Assembly: GCA_946538875.1 (NCBI GenBank)
Contig: CAMNHD010000085.1
Span: 1 to 6,863 of the forward strand
DNA: 6,863 nt
Direction of reading: 5' to 3'
Origin: an uncultured Treponema sp.
GTDB taxonomy: Bacteria > Spirochaetota > Spirochaetia > Treponematales > Treponemataceae
The translations under genes and the position numbers were made by a program. This document shows positions 1 to 6,656 of the stretch, piece by piece. Within the stretch, counting starts at the first letter, position 1. Each line of letters begins with the position of its first letter. The notes under the pieces were generated by a model, which was given only the letters and a program-made list of their open reading frames with translations, had not been told where the DNA came from and did not search any database.

Positions 1-1161
1 CACTCCCGTCTCTTCCACCATTGCCGGTTCCGACACTTCAGGATTAACCTCAGGTTCTTCCTTGCGCACAGGACGGTGCTTTGTAGTACCCCAGTAGACC
101 ACCTGGGGACCTTCTTTAGACTCCCCGTTGTTGAACAGGGCCGCCTTCTCCGCTTCCTTGGCTTGGTCAAGGACAGGCCGTCCATCATCTTCCTCAGCCT
201 CAAACTGCTCAGGGATTTCCCCGATTTCCTCAGGCTCTTCCACCTGACCGTCAGAGAATTCCTCGCCTACAGCCTCTTCGTAAGTAAGTGTCGCATCAGG
301 ATCAACTTCCACATCCTGCACCTGCACATTGTAGTCATCAGGAGCAGTGTAAAAATCATTTATGTCAACAATTTCTTTTTTTGCATCGGGCACGTGAAGT
401 TCAGTTTTTTCAGGAGAAGCCTTAAGCACTTTTTCCAGTTTCCGGCGGTTTTTCTGGAGGAAGCCAAGGAAAGTCTTTGAGATTGAAGGCTTGGAATCAA
501 AGTCCTCCTCATAGTCGTAAGACTCATCCACAACAGTCTTTTCCGACTCATCAGGAGACGGTTCAAAGAATGACTCGTTCACCTCGGGTTCGGCAAAAGC
601 GGAATCATCCTCAGCAAGAGTCTCTTCATCCTTCTGCGCAGAAACACGGGCCTCATGGCGCTTAAGGGCATCAGCACGCCTTGCACCGGCCTCCTGAACC
701 GCATCAAGTTTTTTCTGCACGGCACCAGCTATGACCAGAGTCACAAGATATTCCGCCACTATAAGCAGAATGGTAAACAAAAGCAGCACCACTATCTTGA
801 TTATAGCAACGGGCCCATAGTTAGTGGCATGGATATTCTTTGCCCAGCTCTCGGCAAAAACCACAGTAAAGAACGGCAGTGGGCTGATAAGCAGAGAAAG
901 CGCCCTTTGAACCGACCACTTTGAGTCAAAGCAGAAACTACCTGCCGCCAGAAAGAACACTGGAATCAGCAGGCTTGAAAAACCGTAGGCATCATAGAGA
1001 AGCCTTCCCAGCCTGCGCAGAATGTTTCCGTCGCTTATGTCAGGATTTCCAAAATCAAACAGTTTGAATATTATTGCAACTGCAAAAAGCACCGCCATTA
1101 CAAACATGACGGTACCGGCCACCAAAGCGGTGACCCTTTCCTTTTTAGACATAGTTTTCAT
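1..1161 (-). CDS. ftsK: FtsK/SpoIIIE-type DNA translocase, N-terminal part (cut by window edge)
   Basis: Only the first 387 codons are in the window; the reading frame is open to base 1, so the motor domain lies outside. Seen: a short basic N-terminus, then four hydrophobic segments at about residues 11-33, 59-78, 84-103 and 117-147. The stretch LGRLLYDAYGFSSLLIP (51-67) resembles the GxxGxxLxxxLxxxfGxxxxLlP pattern of the FtsK 4TM domain. From about residue 150 comes a charged helix, then a long linker rich in Glu and Asp, low in hydrophobics. Known for the family: a membrane-anchored, septum-located, ATP-driven DNA pump that clears chromosomes at division. The linker between membrane part and motor is typically long and poorly conserved. 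The start at 1161 is preferred over a second ATG at 1152 because AGGGTGG lies a few bases upstream. It is divergent from rsmI. The call is an inference from the N-terminal half alone; another 4TM protein with an acidic tail is possible. Confidence 0.78.
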   Translation of the reverse strand, partial: MKTMSKKERVTALVAGTVMFVMAVLFAVAIIFKLFDFGNPDISDGNILRRLGRLLYDAYGFSSLLIPVFFLAAGSFCFDSKWSVQRALSLLISPLPFFTVVFAESWAKNIHATNYGPVAIIKIVVLLLFTILLIVAEYLVTLVIAGAVQKKLDAVQEAGARRADALKRHEARVSAQKDEETLAEDDSAFAEPEVNESFFEPSPDESEKTVVDESYDYEEDFDSKPSISKTFLGFLQKNRRKLEKVLKASPEKTELHVPDAKKEIVDINDFYTAPDDYNVQVQDVEVDPDATLTYEEAVGEEFSDGQVEEPEEIGEIPEQFEAEEDDGRPVLDQAKEAEKAALFNNGESKEGPQVVYWGTTKHRPVRKEEPEVNPEVSEPAMVEETGV

Positions 1162-1353: not shown

Positions 1354-2088
1354 GTGTCTGAACTTTATATTGTGGGTACCCCTATAGGGAACCTTGGCGA
1401 CATTACTTACAGAGCTCTGGAAACATTCAAGGCGGTGGATGTGATTGCGGCGGAAGATACACGCCACACCATGGAACTTTTGACCCACTTTGAAATCCGC
1501 AAGCCCCTTATCAGCTGCAGGGCACAGAACGAGGAATTCGCTTCCGAGAAAATAATCAAGCTTCTTGATGAAGGTCAGACCGTAGCTTACGCAAGCGATG
1601 CAGGAACACCAGGCATATCAGACCCGGGAGCAATACTGGCCGGACTGGCGCGCAAGGCAGGTCACAAAGTGGTACCCATTCCGGGAGCAAGTGCCTTTGC
1701 AACCCTGGCAAGCGTGGCCGGAGCAGGAGGCAAGACACTCATCTTTGAAGGATTCCTTTCTCCAAAACCCGGCAGAAGGCGCAGTAGGCTCAGGGAACTT
1801 CTGGCTACAGGGGACGCCATAATCCTTTATGAAAGCCCGTTCAGGATTGTAAAGCTCCTGGCAGACATTGCGGCGATTTCCCCAGACAGGCGTGTAGTAG
1901 TCGGGCGGGAACTGACCAAGCTGCACGAGGAGATAAACGATGCCACAGCCGCCGAGGTTTACGCAGATTATTCTTCACGCAGCAAGATTTTAGGCGAATT
2001 CGCGGTTTTTATCTCCGGCGAGAAAAAGGTTAAACTTTCAGACGTATCTGACGATAATAAAAGGGAGGAAGGTTACTATGATGATTGA
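1354..2088 (+). CDS. rsmI: 16S rRNA 2'-O-ribose C1402 methyltransferase RsmI
   Basis: RsmI transfers a methyl group from S-adenosylmethionine to the 2'-hydroxyl of C1402 in 16S rRNA, in the ribosomal P site. Family motifs are clear and in order: GTPIGNLGDIT (8-18), AEDTR (33-37), SDAGTPGISDPG (81-92), PGASA (110-114), YESPFR (159-164) and RELTKLHEE (185-193). At 244 residues it is shorter than typical members (about 270-290): after the GEFAVFISG strand (214-222) only a charged tail follows, so the usual C-terminal helical extension is missing. The start is GTG at 1354. An in-frame TAA at 1348-1350 and the N-terminal position of the GTPIGNL motif leave no realistic alternative. No Shine-Dalgarno sequence precedes it, and the promoter sits so close that the mRNA is probably leaderless. 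The last 11 bases overlap flgM. Confidence 0.95.
   Translation: MSELYIVGTPIGNLGDITYRALETFKAVDVIAAEDTRHTMELLTHFEIRKPLISCRAQNEEFASEKIIKLLDEGQTVAYASDAGTPGISDPGAILAGLARKAGHKVVPIPGASAFATLASVAGAGGKTLIFEGFLSPKPGRRRSRLRELLATGDAIILYESPFRIVKLLADIAAISPDRRVVVGRELTKLHEEINDATAAEVYADYSSRSKILGEFAVFISGEKKVKLSDVSDDNKREEGYYDD
2031..2057 (+). promoter_or_regulatory. Sigma-28 (FliA)-type flagellar promoter for flgM, inside rsmI
   Basis: TAAACTTT (2031-2038), an 11-base spacer and GACGATAA (2050-2057) match the class III flagellar consensus TAAAGTTT-N11-GCCGATAA at 14 of 16 positions with the exact spacing. Transcription would start near 2064, leaving a leader of about 14 bases that still includes most of the flgM ribosome binding site. 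It lies wholly within the last codons of rsmI. Confidence 0.65.
2063..2072 (+). promoter_or_regulatory. Ribosome binding site of flgM
   Basis: GGGAGGAAGG ends 5 bases before the ATG at 2078; the GGAGG core is 9 bases from it. This is a very strong site, in contrast with rsmI, which has none. It favours the ATG at 2078 over the adjacent ATG at 2081, though either could be used. Confidence 0.75.
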
Positions 2089-2365
2089 CAAGATTTCAGG
2101 AATCAATTCCATTAACTCTTTGCAGAATACAAACCGTACTTCTGCAACTGGAAGCTTACGTTCAGCATCAGATGAGATCAGTGTGTCGGACGAAGCCAAG
2201 GAATTGGCTGACGCATACTACCTCAATCAGGTTGCAGCAGAAACTCCTGATGTACGTTCTGAGCTTATTGAACAGATTAAGCTTAAAATCCAGGATCCAA
2301 ACTACCTCAGTGCTGAAACCATTGCGGCTACGGCGGATCGTATTATGACCGCTTACGGACTTTAA
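2078..2365 (+). CDS. flgM: Anti-sigma-28 factor FlgM
   Basis: FlgM binds and holds the flagellar sigma factor FliA until the hook-basal body is complete and FlgM is exported. The 95-residue length fits the family. Seen: a polar, low-complexity N-terminal half rich in Ser, Asn and Thr (about 1-33), as expected for a disordered region. Next comes the family's ISVSDEAKELA segment (34-44). The C-terminal sigma-binding helices follow, with PDVRSELIEQIKLKIQDPNY (57-76) and TIAATADRIM (81-90), matching the PDVR-x-E-x-I-x-x-K-x-x-I-x-x-x-x-Y pattern. It overlaps the end of rsmI by 11 bases in another frame, so rsmI readthrough transcripts would couple translation. A sigma-28-like promoter lies about 20 bases upstream, which would make FlgM its own indirect repressor as in enteric bacteria. 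No fliA or other flagellar gene is in the window. Confidence 0.9.
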   Translation: MMIDKISGINSINSLQNTNRTSATGSLRSASDEISVSDEAKELADAYYLNQVAAETPDVRSELIEQIKLKIQDPNYLSAETIAATADRIMTAYGL

Positions 2366-2373
2366 TCCGTAAG
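2352..2373 (+). repeat. Hairpin straddling the flgM stop codon
   Basis: CTTACGGA (2352-2359) and TCCGTAAG (2366-2373) form a perfect 8-bp stem around a 6-base loop that contains the TAA stop codon (2363-2365). No T-run follows, so it is not a classical terminator. It may protect the mRNA 3' end or act in termination or mRNA stability. Confidence 0.55.
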
Positions 2374-2383
2374 AACACCTCTT

Positions 2384-2528
2384 AAGAACTGTCCTGATAA
2401 GTTCCGAGGACTTTCATGCCTTGTTTGAACAGGGTACCTGCATCATTGCCTTTTGGCGAGACACTTGCAGTTTTCCGGATTAGATCCGGGAATGAATGTT
2501 CCGGCTTGATCCGGCAGTTCTTTTTTTT
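2384..2528 (+). ncRNA. Candidate structured RNA of about 140 nt ending in a T-run
   Basis: By hand folding, the two ends pair: 2384-2393 with 2513-2522 (10 bp, one G-U), followed directly by eight T residues (2521-2528), as in an intrinsic terminator. Inside this, AAG 2399-2401 pairs with CTT 2505-2507. Bases 2404-2417 then pair with 2492-2504 (12 bp, including one G-U, with one bulged A and one T-T mismatch). The top carries three hairpins. The first is 2418-2424 with 2429-2435, loop TTGA. The second is 2438-2442 with 2466-2470, topped by 2446-2450 with 2455-2459 and loop TTTT. The third is 2474-2480 with 2484-2490, loop TAG. No open frame or start site is apparent. It could be an independent small RNA, a folded 3' end of the rsmI-flgM transcript, or a leader regulating the gene at 2748. 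I do not recognise it as 6S, SRP, tmRNA or a known riboswitch. I see no convincing dedicated promoter. Confidence 0.5.
2513..2528 (+). terminator. T-run at the 3' end of the rsmI-flgM transcript or the folded RNA
   Basis: Eight consecutive T (2521-2528) follow the 3' strand GGCAGTTCTT of a 10-bp helix whose 5' strand lies 120 bases upstream. A local alternative is CCGG (2501-2504) pairing with CCGG (2511-2514). Rho-independent termination here is likely, but the hairpin actually used is not clear. Confidence 0.55.
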
Positions 2529-2538
2529 ATTTAAATTC

Positions 2539-2625
2539 CTGGCATGAACCCCAGGCGCCTACGCCCGATTTGCAAGGCCCGCAAGGGGCCGCCCTGCGGC
2601 TGGAGCGCAAGCGCAACCTGGAAAA
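2539..2625. repeat. GC-rich block of consecutive small palindromes
   Basis: Several short inverted repeats follow each other: CCTGG with CCAGG, GGCCC-GCAAG-GGGCC, GCCGC-CCT-GCGGC and GCGC-AA-GCGC. Base composition is far above that of the flanks (the T-run before, A-rich DNA after). It resembles REP-like intergenic elements in style, but I cannot show that it is repeated elsewhere in the genome. A similar GC-rich hairpin block occurs at 6486-6573. Confidence 0.4.
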
Positions 2626-2736
2626 GCGGGGAACTTGCCACAGACCGCATGTTTTTACATCTGCAGAGCACGCCACCCAAGCGTTCCGTTCCAAAAAATT
2701 AAAGTATGGTCTAAGTTCAGCCGTTAAAATAAGGGT

Positions 2737-2747: not shown

Positions 2748-3896
2748 ATGGCAGACTTTATCTTTAAAATTCAACCGAACATCATTCTTGGTTCTTACAC
2801 TACCAGCCGCCTGGGACAATACGTAAAGGAATGGGGCACCAAATATATGGTTATCATGGACCCTATTCTAAAGCAGGTGGGCAATGCTGAAAAAGTTACT
2901 CAGTCTCTTGCCGACAGGAAAATTGACTTTTTTACTTTTGAGGAAATTCCTGAAGGCGCGGACACACAGGTTGTCATAAACGCTCTGTCGCTTGCGCGCG
3001 AGGCTCACATCCACGGCGTGATTGCTGTGGGCGGTTCCAAGGCACTGAATCTGGCCAGGGCAGTCTGCACCCTGTACCACGAAAACCACGAACTGTATGA
3101 CTTTATCGACGGCGCATCCCCTACCACGGCCCCTCTGCCATTGGTGGCACTTCCTACGACTATCCGCGACTGCTTTGTCTTTACCGACAGAATTCCTATA
3201 ATTGACGCACGCTCTTCCAAGATTAAGCTGCTCAAGTCACAGAATGCGCTCTGCAGACTTGTTCTGTTCGACCCAAACCTTGCGGTGACTCTTACTGAAA
3301 ACCAGACTGCTTCCATGGCGATTGAAACTCTTGCCATTGCGACCGAGGCTTACCTTAACCAGAAGGCCACTTTCTTCAGCGACATGATTGCTGAAAAGTC
3401 CGTGGAACTGCTGAGCTATGCCCTGGACGGTTCTCCCAGCCTTACAATCACCACTCCGCAGGAAGTCCTTTACAGTCAGGCGGGCTGTATGGCATCCCTT
3501 GCGGCGGCATCAAGTTCTGTGGGCGCTGCATCGCTTATCTCCATGTGTCTCAACGCACGGTTCAAAATTTCACGCTCGCTGACCACGGCAATTCTTCTTC
3601 CTTATATTATAGAAGACGGGGCCAAATACCGGAGCGACAGGCTTGCACGTCTTAGCCGCATACTCCGCGCCGCCCCACAGACCGCATCCGATGCGGAGGC
3701 AGTAAGCGCCTTTGTCGAATACGTAAGGCAGCACATTGCCAAGTCCAATCTGCCGGCACGTCTCAAGGACCTGAATGTTACGATTGAACAGCTTGCCCTT
3801 GCGGCAGAAGATGCCGGAGAACTTGACCTGATAAATACACTTCAGCGCAGCATGACCAGCGACGATCTGTTTGACATCATCAAGCAGGCATTCTAA
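2748..3896 (+). CDS. Iron-containing alcohol dehydrogenase-fold protein lacking metal ligands
   Basis: The 382-residue length and order of segments fit the Fe-ADH/glycerol dehydrogenase family: a nucleotide-binding N-terminal half, with AVGGSKALNLARAV (93-106) aligning to the AVGGGSxxDxAKAV motif, PLVALPTT (131-138), FDPNLAVTL (174-182), ETLAIATEAY (193-202) and TAILLP (280-285). Active members oxidise alcohols or polyols with NAD(P) and a bound Fe or Zn. Here every usual metal ligand seems replaced: the Asp and His of DALTHAIEAY become Glu193 and Ile197, the His of AHPLG becomes about Met266, and the His of PHGxAN becomes Arg276. The cofactor motifs GGGSxxD and GTGSE are also altered (GGSKALN; RDCFVF at 140-145). 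The frame is intact and codon use is normal, so the gene is maintained rather than decaying. I infer a non-catalytic or re-purposed family member. The next gene follows after 6 bases and is probably co-transcribed. Confidence 0.8.
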   Translation: MADFIFKIQPNIILGSYTTSRLGQYVKEWGTKYMVIMDPILKQVGNAEKVTQSLADRKIDFFTFEEIPEGADTQVVINALSLAREAHIHGVIAVGGSKALNLARAVCTLYHENHELYDFIDGASPTTAPLPLVALPTTIRDCFVFTDRIPIIDARSSKIKLLKSQNALCRLVLFDPNLAVTLTENQTASMAIETLAIATEAYLNQKATFFSDMIAEKSVELLSYALDGSPSLTITTPQEVLYSQAGCMASLAAASSSVGAASLISMCLNARFKISRSLTTAILLPYIIEDGAKYRSDRLARLSRILRAAPQTASDAEAVSAFVEYVRQHIAKSNLPARLKDLNVTIEQLALAAEDAGELDLINTLQRSMTSDDLFDIIKQAF

Positions 3897-3902
3897 GCGG
3901 CC

Positions 3903-4727
3903 ATGATTGAACCTGAAAAACTCTTTCAACTGGCAGCAGGACAAAAAAGACGCAAGCTCGCACTGACGTTCGGTGAACTTGAACGCGACATTGCGGGTAT
4001 TGCGGAAAAAGGCACCGCCTACAACTTTTCCAAAATGACAAGGCAGGAATACACCAAAGCCGTTGTGAAAATCCTGCTGCAGGATCCAAAGCTTCCCGAA
4101 CAGACCGCCACTCAACTCAAGGAACTTCTTGCCTCCCAACCTTTTGACGAACTGCGCACATGCAACATCGCACGCAACGCACTGCTTTCCATAATCGGTA
4201 CTTTTCCTGCCGAGTGGGACCTTGTGATTGCGCCGCACAAGAACTCAGATCAGACTGTAGCCACACGCAAATTCTTTCCGAATGTCTGCGTCTACGCGGA
4301 AGACATACGCTCACCGTTCAATGTGGGCTCTATTTTCCGCACGGCAGAAGCTATGGGCTGCGACAAGGTGTTTATCTCACCCCAGTGCACTGATCCCGGA
4401 CAGAGCAAGGCTATACGCAGCGGAATGGGCTGCATCGAGACAATGGGCTGGGAAAGGCTTTCACTCGAACAGTTGCCGGAGAATCTGCCGGTATTCGTAC
4501 TGGAAACCGGTGGCACTCCGATTCAGGAATTTGAATTTCCGAAGGAAGGAATTGTTATAATCGGTTCAGAAGAACTTGGGGTTAGTCCTGAGGCACTCCA
4601 CCGCGGCACTTACGGGCGGGTCAGCATTCCTATGACAGGACTCAAGGCTTCGCTTAATGTCGGTGTAGCTTTTGGGATTTTGATGCAGGCTTGGGTCCAG
4701 GCTCTTGGCGGCGCGGGACGCTGTTAG
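3903..4727 (+). CDS. SpoU/TrmH-family RNA 2'-O-ribose methyltransferase
   Basis: SPOUT-fold enzymes of this family methylate a ribose 2'-hydroxyl in tRNA or rRNA with S-adenosylmethionine, acting as dimers with a trefoil knot. All three family motifs are present: motif 1 around EDIRSPFNVGSIFRTAEA (133-150) with Asn140 and Arg146, motif 2 GSEELGVSPEAL (221-232), and motif 3 VSIPMTGLKASLNVGVAFG (240-258). The N-terminal 125 residues are mostly helical-looking (KLFQLAAGQKRRKLALTFGE, then an Arg/Lys-rich segment). They do not look like the L30e-like substrate domain of RlmB or TsnR, so the RNA target cannot be named. The gene begins 6 bases after the stop of the dehydrogenase-like gene with no clear Shine-Dalgarno sequence, which suggests translation by coupling. 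Its last codons (from about 4719) run into the 19-bp tandem repeat. Confidence 0.88.
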   Translation: MIEPEKLFQLAAGQKRRKLALTFGELERDIAGIAEKGTAYNFSKMTRQEYTKAVVKILLQDPKLPEQTATQLKELLASQPFDELRTCNIARNALLSIIGTFPAEWDLVIAPHKNSDQTVATRKFFPNVCVYAEDIRSPFNVGSIFRTAEAMGCDKVFISPQCTDPGQSKAIRSGMGCIETMGWERLSLEQLPENLPVFVLETGGTPIQEFEFPKEGIVIIGSEELGVSPEALHRGTYGRVSIPMTGLKASLNVGVAFGILMQAWVQALGGAGRC

Positions 4728-4846
4728 CAGTACGGGCGGCACTTAGCGGTGCAGTAACTGCCTGGCTGGGCAGTAACCGCTTAGCGGCGCAGTAACCGCT
4801 TAGCGGTGTGATACCCGCTTACCGGCGCAGTACCCCTAACTGGCAC
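4728..4846. repeat. Degenerate 19-bp tandem repeat between convergent genes
   Basis: CAGTA-like units begin at 4752, 4771, 4790, 4809 and 4828, exactly 19 bases apart; a sixth, longer copy of 24 bases starts at 4728. The two best copies (4771 and 4790) read CAGTAACCGCTTAGCGGYG. Each contains the small palindrome CCGC-TTA-GCGG, so the array can fold on either strand. There are no spacers and no T-run. It fills the gap between the stop codons of the methyltransferase and the GHKL-HDOD gene and may help end transcription from both sides. Confidence 0.75.
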
Positions 4847-6429: not shown

Positions 6430-6485
6430 GTTTTTTTGGGCAGGCCGCAGCTTCCACACCCATCATAACGAAAAAACACCCCCTT

Positions 6486-6573
6486 TCCCGAAAATCCGGG
6501 CCTTCCGGGCTCCCCTACGGTCGGTACGCATCCGCGCACGGCCTCCGGCCCCCTCCACGCCCATGCGTACGCC
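6486..6573. repeat. GC-rich block with a long inverted repeat
   Basis: GTACGCAT (6524-6531) pairs perfectly with ATGCGTAC (6563-6570), enclosing a smaller hairpin GGCC-TCC-GGCC (6540-6550). Just upstream, TCCGGGC occurs twice (6495-6501 and 6504-6510), next to CCCG-AAAATC-CGGG. Composition contrasts sharply with AT-rich flanks on both sides. It is similar in style to the block at 2539-2625, though not an obvious copy of it. Confidence 0.45.
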
Positions 6574-6656
6574 TGGGTGTATGGTAAAACATGCCGCAAT
6601 CAAGTTGAACGTATATTGTTTGTTGTTTACAAAGAACGCGGAGCTGAGTCAAATTT

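What the first reader, a model, noticed from the sequence alone, without database searches (positions are those of the whole stretch)
2384..2528. Unassigned, strongly folded RNA candidate downstream of flgM
The ends of a 139-base stretch pair over 10 bp and are followed at once by eight T. Inside lies a second long-range helix of 12 bp with one bulge and one mismatch, then three hairpins, giving a rod topped by a four-way junction. Such nested long-range pairing is unlikely by chance and no known RNA family was recognised. TAAGAAC also occurs just upstream (2370-2376), which could swap into the closing helix and make a two-state switch.
Basis: partly seen in the sequence, partly recalled or inferred. 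Interest (0 to 1): 0.75.

Follow-up and report, generated by a model that had tools for sequence, protein, structure and literature searches.

The report
Repeat palindromes inside the flgM terminator
The folded stretch after a spirochaete flagellar gene is real, but it is best read as an old copy of a widespread genomic repeat (paired palindromes) sitting inside that gene's transcription terminator, not as a new regulatory RNA.

Summary
The fold is real: z -6.4, 0 of 200 shuffles as good, with the rod, four-way junction and T8 described. It is not a conserved flgM RNA: 79 of 80 Treponema-group flgM loci have a plain hairpin-plus-T there, and neither of two covariance models finds a relative in the 80. 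The junction part (2412-2497) belongs to a dispersed repeat family. A model built from 31 copies in four other genomes, without the window's letters, picks out exactly 2412-2497 (32.7 bits, E 1e-5; best place elsewhere 5.4). The family is an inverted pair of TGTC-tagged REP palindromes with compensatory changes between copies, found in 95 of 196 genomes of the genus. It fits the published CGTC REP dimers, already reported in Spirochaetes (PMC3733652). The outer helix plus T8 resembles flgM terminators elsewhere, though its 3' arm also contains a REP-like core. Best reading: a flgM terminator with degenerate REP units in its loop. Its role in termination and message stability is inferred. The proposed switch is 12.8 kcal/mol uphill. 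The window's genome is not held, so its copy number and the insertion event are untested.

The parts
1354..2088 (+). gene upstream: tetrapyrrole-methylase-family protein (the name rsmI is recalled), overlaps the start of flgM
   Evidence: Pfam TP_methylase, E 4.7e-32; coordinates
2078..2365 (+). flgM, anti-sigma-28 factor
   Evidence: Pfam FlgM, 32.2 bits, cut-off 25; 78% identical to a protein a source names FlgM of Treponema sp.
2352..2373 (+). small hairpin over the flgM stop codon; holds the TAAG of the upstream TAAGAAC copy
   Evidence: fold of 2340-2560
2384..2401 (+). 5' arm of the outer helix (terminator stem), pairs with 2505-2522 (16 pairs)
   Evidence: the two arms as a duplex -14.6 kcal/mol
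2505..2522 (+). 3' arm of the outer helix
2501..2516 (+). REP-like core CCGGCTTGATCCGGCA overlapping the 3' arm of the outer helix (one base missing against CCGGACTTGATCCGGCA)
   Evidence: local alignment score 27; none of about 1,676 other 31-nt segments of the window reaches it
2521..2528 (+). T8 at the end of the outer helix: intrinsic-terminator tail
   Evidence: read from the sequence
2412..2497 (+). degenerate REP dimer (TTTCAT ... ATGAAT); family copies TGTCAT ... ATGACA
   Evidence: model R2 built without the window's letters: 32.7 bits, E 1.1e-5, filters off
2418..2435 (+). first REP-like palindrome (hairpin 1), strongly diverged
2438..2470 (+). spacer hairpin between the two REP units
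   Evidence: the matching helix is the weakest in the family, 78.1% of cells paired, and not predicted by RNAalifold
2473..2491 (+). second, inverted REP palindrome (hairpin 3)
   Evidence: best REP alignment of the window, score 29; 0 of 1000 shuffles of 2384-2528 as good
2401..2406 (+). GTTCCG, left copy of a possible 6-base duplication (other copy 2498-2503)
   Evidence: sequence only; suggestive, not tested

Best explanation
The structure is the intrinsic terminator of the flgM transcript with degenerate copies of a dispersed repeat in its loop: an inverted pair of TGTC-tagged REP palindromes (CGTC type) with a spacer. Shown here: 2412-2497 matches that family; the family is repeated in many genomes of the genus, differs in presence between species at orthologous sites, and keeps its hairpins by compensatory changes; other species have a plain hairpin-plus-T after flgM. 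Inferred: the outer helix with T8 ends transcription; the insert folds on its own and lets the distant arms meet, so termination is kept; the long folded 3' end then shields the short flgM message from exonucleases or offers a double-strand cleavage site. The insert itself is most likely a passenger.
For: Model R2 (letters from 31 copies in G002, G007, G018 and G037) scores 2412-2497 at 32.7 bits, E 1.1e-5; best place elsewhere in the window 5.4 bits; no match at E <= 0.1 in 466,982 bases of 80 flgM neighbourhoods. In the window copy 24 of 25 model pairs are standard although only 46 of 83 letters match the consensus; 10 pairs differ on both sides. Family: 95.4% of 775 cells paired, covariation score 0.263 against 0.091 +- 0.009, 13 pairs with double changes against 7.2; 0 of 500 shuffles reach these. 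REP core pattern: 24 of 196 genomes, 67 hits in G007 and 19 in G002, reversed-pattern control 0. Dimer pattern: 20 of those 24 genomes, control 0. R2 at E <= 0.001: 95 of 196 genomes. Presence/absence: one copy with its flanks in G002 and not in G006 or G001; another in G002, not in G001. Terminator: 79 of 80 flgM loci have a hairpin plus T-run; in 7 of 80 that hairpin's 5' arm holds CTGTC, and L003 has AAGGACTGTCC ... GGCAGTCC-T9 at this very place.
Against: The TGTC tag is TTTC in the window copy. R2 is independent in letters, not in design: copies were found through a model of the window's fold and the structure was named with that fold in mind; RNAalifold on the same copies did not predict the spacer helix. 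One covariation measure is weak: further pair types 21 against 18.0, reached by 36 of 500 shuffles. The window-only model's best hits have E 1e-4 per genome over 196 genomes. The 3' arm of the outer helix itself contains a REP-like core, so the 'native terminator' may be partly repeat-derived. A simple terminator scan does not call this site, since the loop exceeds 100 nt. No transcript data. The window's genome is not held and the nearest flgM relative among 200 genomes searched is 77% identical, so the same insert in a sister strain, or its empty site, could not be seen.
Confidence: 0.73

Rival explanations
1. The whole 139 nt, outer helix included, is repeat-derived: either a composite that arrived as one unit (outer inverted arms of the type GGGGCTGTCCAAAAAGTA around a REP dimer) or a small cluster of REP units. 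The T-run was met or evolved afterwards and made it the flgM terminator.
For: In G002 (4), G007 (7) and G004 (1) the dimer end is joined to such an arm at 12 places (20 genomes searched, up to 3 mismatches, reversed-pattern control 0). My script printed 6 of those 12 loci; in 4 of the 6 both arms pair around a dimer, and in a fifth (L245) around another palindrome. One G002 copy is missing with its flanks from G006 and G001. The window's 3' outer arm contains a REP-like core. The window arm CTGTCCTGATAAGT resembles CTGTCCAAAAAGT.
Against: Shared arm letters are few (CTGTCC, then A.AAGT), and plain flgM terminators with the same CTGTCC stem exist (L003). The printed composite copies have no T-run directly after the arm. 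With 3 mismatches the arm pattern alone gives 15 hits against 2 controls in G002, but 22 against 16 in G007 and 14 against 15 in G004.
Confidence: 0.33
2. A functional flgM-linked RNA: a discrete small RNA, or a 3' UTR switch using the two TAAGAAC copies.
For: Strong fold, T8 end, next to a regulator of flagellar genes, no Rfam match.
Against: Not found at flgM in 80 relatives; switch form 12.8 kcal/mol worse; the inner part matches a repeat family; no promoter-like site on this strand in 2000-2900.
Confidence: 0.06
3. A DNA-level element only (REP dimer cruciform) whose presence in the transcript is incidental.
For: It also folds as DNA (z -4.7); the window copy matches R2 on both strands (32.7 and 23.9 bits).
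Against: The T8 is exactly placed for RNA termination on the flgM strand, and 79 of 80 relatives have a hairpin plus T-run there.
Confidence: 0.2

Closest known systems
CGTC-tagged REP dimers (Di Nocera, De Gregorio and Rocco 2013, PMC3733652; abstract, the sections on CGTC families and on dimers, and passages read)
   Same: TGTC accepted as a variant tag, A-T pairs at the stem base, short loops, mostly inverted dimers, some spacers with complementary ends or stem-loops, REPs mostly downstream of genes, Spirochaetes named among hosts, no dedicated transposase known
   Different: the window copy has TTTC instead of the tag and sits inside a terminator stem; the word Treponema does not occur in the paper's main text (figures not held)
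REPINs (Bertels and Rainey 2011, PMC3116915; passages read)
   Same: REP doublets as inverted repeats with a spacer, forming hairpins, with compensatory changes
   Different: REPINs are tied to RAYT transposases; PF01797 (Y1 transposase) was found in 2 of 17 genomes with such repeats and not in G002 or G007
Intrinsic (Rho-independent) terminator
   Same: GC-containing stem ending in T8, at the place where 79 of 80 relatives have a hairpin plus T-run
   Different: loop of over 100 nt, itself folded, instead of a few bases

Membership tests
CGTC REP superfamily (dimer) | tag CGTC or TGTC at one end | tested here: not met
   Window copy: TTTC. So it is called a degenerate relative, not an intact unit. 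Family copies have TGTC in 30 of 31 and CGTC in 1, but TGTCAT ... ATGACA was required when I picked 30 of them, so this is partly imposed
CGTC REP superfamily (dimer) | palindromic stem of 8-9 bp with A-T pairs at its base, loop of 4-5 | tested here: inconclusive
   family copies: stems of up to 9 bp starting AT, loop 5; window units as folded 7 and 8 bp with loops of 4 and 3, close but not exact
CGTC REP superfamily (dimer) | two units in opposite orientation with a spacer, tags outward | tested here: met
   R2 match over the full model, 1-83, at 2412-2497
CGTC REP superfamily (dimer) | many copies per genome | tested here: inconclusive
   met in relatives; the window's own genome is not held, and the window holds one R2 match place
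REPIN in the strict sense | associated RAYT (Y1) transposase | tested here: not met
   in relatives only: PF01797 in 2 of 17 genomes (G149, G188), none in G002 or G007; not testable for the window's genome
Intrinsic terminator | stem followed at once by a run of T | tested here: met
   arm 2505-2522, T-run 2521-2528
Intrinsic terminator | short loop (3-8 in the scan used) | tested here: not met
   0 terminator-like sites in 2000-2900
Intrinsic terminator | ends transcription in the cell | not testable with these tools
   needs 3'-end mapping
Conserved flgM-associated structured RNA | present after flgM in relatives | tested here: not met
   0 of 80 loci with model R1 at E <= 5 or R2 at E <= 0.1, default filters. 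DNA search of 200 genomes (4 candidates scored in each): 27 matches at E <= 0.01, all of 35 bases or fewer, 24 of the 27 within the last 48 of 175 query bases

The most novel reading that the evidence does not exclude
CGTC-type REP dimers in Treponema travel nested inside outer inverted arms, and such nested palindromes can land in, or become, working transcription terminators: mobile, self-folding terminator inserts that spread through the genus without a RAYT transposase, by an enzyme that recognises the outer arms.
Probability: 0.12. Interest if true: 0.55.

Novelty: new member of a known kind. Interest (0 to 1): 0.28.

Why it matters
It is a clean case of a highly significant single-sequence fold that looks like a new structured RNA but resolves into a repeat plus a terminator once relatives are read. 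It also shows a TGTC-tagged REP-dimer population with compensatory changes (31 copies from four genomes) and matches in 95 of 196 Treponema-group genomes. In 15 of 17 such genomes tested no Y1 transposase was found, which bears on the open question of how CGTC REPs move.

Tried and rejected
Rfam family: nothing on this stretch at E <= 5; nothing at gathering threshold in four loci that hold family copies. Conserved flgM RNA: rejected. Switch by TAAGAAC: rejected on energy. A gene inside: no ORF of 50 aa or more lies within 2384-2526. Recurrent terminator AAGRACTGTYC ... GGCAGTYC-T7: real but rare, 6 of 196 genomes. Flank pairing as a trait of the family: not general; 37 copies have median duplex -8.5 against -7.8 for mixed pairs; the window's flanks pair at -22.4, bettered by one copy (L219, -24.3) and reached by 24 of 1369 mixed pairs. 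Clean target-site duplication: none readable in the presence/absence loci. Y1/RAYT transposase: found in 2 of 17 genomes. Transposase for the outer arms: not found; the arm pattern is too loose to settle it. A weak R1 hit in G013 (E 0.035) with many broken pairs was not followed. Papers: the searches listed no paper whose title or abstract start describes this family in Treponema; few of the listed papers were opened, and subscription journals are largely not held.

Rows left out: one search listed 37 copies from 36 of the 40 fetched loci or fewer (several loci gave none, two gave two). A3 uses 30 of the 37 plus L215, which I placed by hand from the R1 hit. Left out were L212, L237, L239 and the two rows each of L226 and L227 (overlapping fetches of the same two places). 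The patterns fixed letters: TGTCAT and ATGACA ends, and CGG / CCG in one hairpin, so constancy there says little; I chose the orientation of each copy. Double changes in 5 of 7 pairs of hairpin 1 were not directly imposed.

Full report
What was claimed and whether it is there. The stretch 2384-2528 folds at -57.0 kcal/mol, z -6.36, with none of 200 shuffles as good. No Rfam family matches it.

Surroundings. The gene order is a tetrapyrrole-methylase-family gene (1354-2088; rsmI by recall), flgM (2078-2365), the element, an iron-containing alcohol dehydrogenase-like gene (2748-3896) and a SpoU-type methylase gene (3903-4727). FlgM is 78% identical to a protein that a source names FlgM of Treponema sp.. 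The window's own genome is not held; among 200 genomes of the genus of G001, 185 have a FlgM match and the nearest is 77% identical.

The same place in relatives. A scan of genome contigs kept 80 flgM loci. Behind flgM stands, in 79 of 80, a hairpin followed by at least five T; the T-run starts a median 60 nt from the stop codon and the hairpin is a median 26 nt long. The miss is L054. In the window the T-run starts 158 nt from the stop codon by the same measure. No locus holds a relative of the window's structure by the window-only model R1 at E <= 5 or by the family model R2 at E <= 0.1. A DNA search of 200 genomes, four candidates scored in each, gave 27 matches at E <= 0.01, all of 35 bases or fewer, 24 of them over the 3' tail. 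I conclude that the structure is not a conserved companion of flgM.

What the inner part is. One related genome, G007, holds many copies of a palindrome TGTCATTGCCGGACTTGATCCGGCAATC. The two best alignments of such REP units in the window both lie in the element: score 29 at the third hairpin (0 of 1000 shuffles of the element as good) and 27 at 2501-2516, in the 3' outer arm; the next place outside has 20. The core pattern is present in 24 of 196 genomes, with 67 hits in G007 and 19 in G002 and none for the reversed control. Model R1, made from the window alone, found its best matches in G002 (E 1e-4) and G007 (E 2e-4 and 7e-4), and a weak one in G013 (E 0.035) with many broken pairs. The G002 and G007 matches are inverted pairs of these palindromes with a spacer: TGTCAT, hairpin, spacer, hairpin, ATGACA. 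The dimer pattern occurs in 20 of the 24 REP-bearing genomes, control 0 (palindromic places can count on both strands, so 184 strand matches in G007 are fewer places).

Test without the window's letters. Thirty-one copies from four genomes were aligned (A3; selection told under tried and rejected). For the three-hairpin structure 95.4% of 775 cells pair; 13 of 25 pairs have changes on both sides (shuffled mean 7.2); covariation score 0.263 against 0.091; none of 500 shuffles reaches these three. A fourth measure, further pair types, is less clear: 21 against 18.0, reached by 36 of 500. The tool warns that relatedness inflates such counts, but slid controls give covariation of 0.013-0.065. The spacer helix is the weak one (78.1% paired), and RNAalifold does not predict it. 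Model R2 from A3 finds 2412-2497 of the window at 32.7 bits, E 1.1e-5, every position scored; the reverse strand of the same place is second (23.9), as expected for a palindrome, and the next place has 5.4 bits. In that alignment 46 of 83 letters match, 24 of 25 pairs are standard, and 10 pairs differ from the consensus on both sides. This is what an old copy that kept its fold looks like. R2 matches 95 of 196 genomes at E <= 0.001, with at most 23 candidates scored per genome. Caveats: the copies were reached through the window's own model, the structure was named with the window's fold in mind, and E-values of these models are rough.

Mobility. At one G002 place the dimer with its flanks is missing from G006, whose sequence on both sides aligns, and from G001, whose downstream flank is more diverged. 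At another it is missing from G001 together with some flanking bases. A third is shared by G002 and G006, and G001 has a different short palindrome there. No clean target duplication can be read. PF01797 transposases were found in 2 of 17 genomes tested and not in G002 or G007.

The outer helix. Its stem, AAGAACTGTCC ... GGCAGTTC-T8, resembles terminators of the genus. L003 has AAGGACTGTCC ... GGCAGTCC-T9 behind flgM itself, and in 7 of 80 flgM loci the terminator's 5' arm holds CTGTC; an AAGAACTGTTC ... GGCAGTTC-T9 follows a tRNA-Met gene in L102. The strict pattern is rare, 6 of 196 genomes. A direct repeat GTTCCG (2401-2406, 2498-2503) would fit an insertion into the loop of such a hairpin, but six bases are weak evidence. 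Against this, the 3' arm contains a REP-like core, and a composite class exists: in G002, G007 and G004 dimer ends are joined to arms of the type GGGGCTGTCCAAAAAGTA at 12 places, and in 4 of the 6 places printed both arms pair around a dimer as in the window. So whether the outer helix is native or repeat-derived is open; I lean to native.

How it most likely works. Inferred: the outer stem and T8 terminate the flgM transcript; the insert folds locally and brings the distant arms together; the folded end may stabilise the message or be cut by a double-strand RNase.

Against the literature. Di Nocera et al. 2013 (PMC3733652; abstract, sections on CGTC families and dimers, and passages) describe CGTC-tagged REPs, with TGTC among the common variants, stems of 8-9 bp with A-T at the base, loops of 4-5, mostly dimers, some with structured spacers, REPs lying mainly downstream of genes, CGTC repeats found in Spirochaetes among five phyla, without a dedicated transposase. 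The family found here fits; the window copy lacks the tag and is called a degenerate relative. REPINs (PMC3116915, passages) share the architecture, but the RAYT link was tested in relatives and mostly not met. A 2025 survey (PMC12306157, passages) reports REPs in Spirochaetota with motifs similar to those of other taxa and does not contain the word Treponema in its main text. A 2021 search for structured RNAs (PMC8040213, passages) predicts that 230 of its 250 palindromic candidates could form terminators and says the rest may be REPs, which is the trap this finding illustrates.

Verdict. A real structure, ordinary in kind: a repeat plus a terminator. Interest 0.28.

Noticed in passing
window 2501-2516: A third REP-like core (CCGGCTTGATCCGGCA) lies in the 3' arm of the outer helix, so the terminator stem and the repeat overlap; unexplained whether by descent or chance.
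   Followed up: partly
window 4723-4836: Copies at a 19-base step (CTTAGCGGTGCAGTAACTG type; five 38-nt members listed) between the SpoU-type gene and the convergent HDOD gene.
   Followed up: no
window 2545-2680 and 6470-6600: GC-rich, palindrome-like intergenic stretches by eye; possibly another repeat family of this genome.
   Followed up: no
L013 and L014, after flgM: Two relatives also have an unusually long 3' region (T-run ending 170 and 167 nt from the stop codon), not matched by R1 or R2.
   Followed up: partly
L243, L244, L247, L249 (G007 and G002): Nested elements: outer inverted arms of the type GGGGCTGTCCAAAAAGTA around a REP dimer.
   Followed up: partly
flanks of copies in L208, L209, L219, L239 (G002 and G007): Short tandem runs of partial REP units (TGTCATTATCGGGCTTGAAA and similar) beside dimers, as if units were added or lost stepwise.
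   Followed up: no
window 1-1161, minus strand: Open frame with hydrophobic N-terminal stretches and an acidic tail, no Pfam match, cut by the window's edge; it could be the start of an FtsK-like protein (recalled, untested).
   Followed up: no
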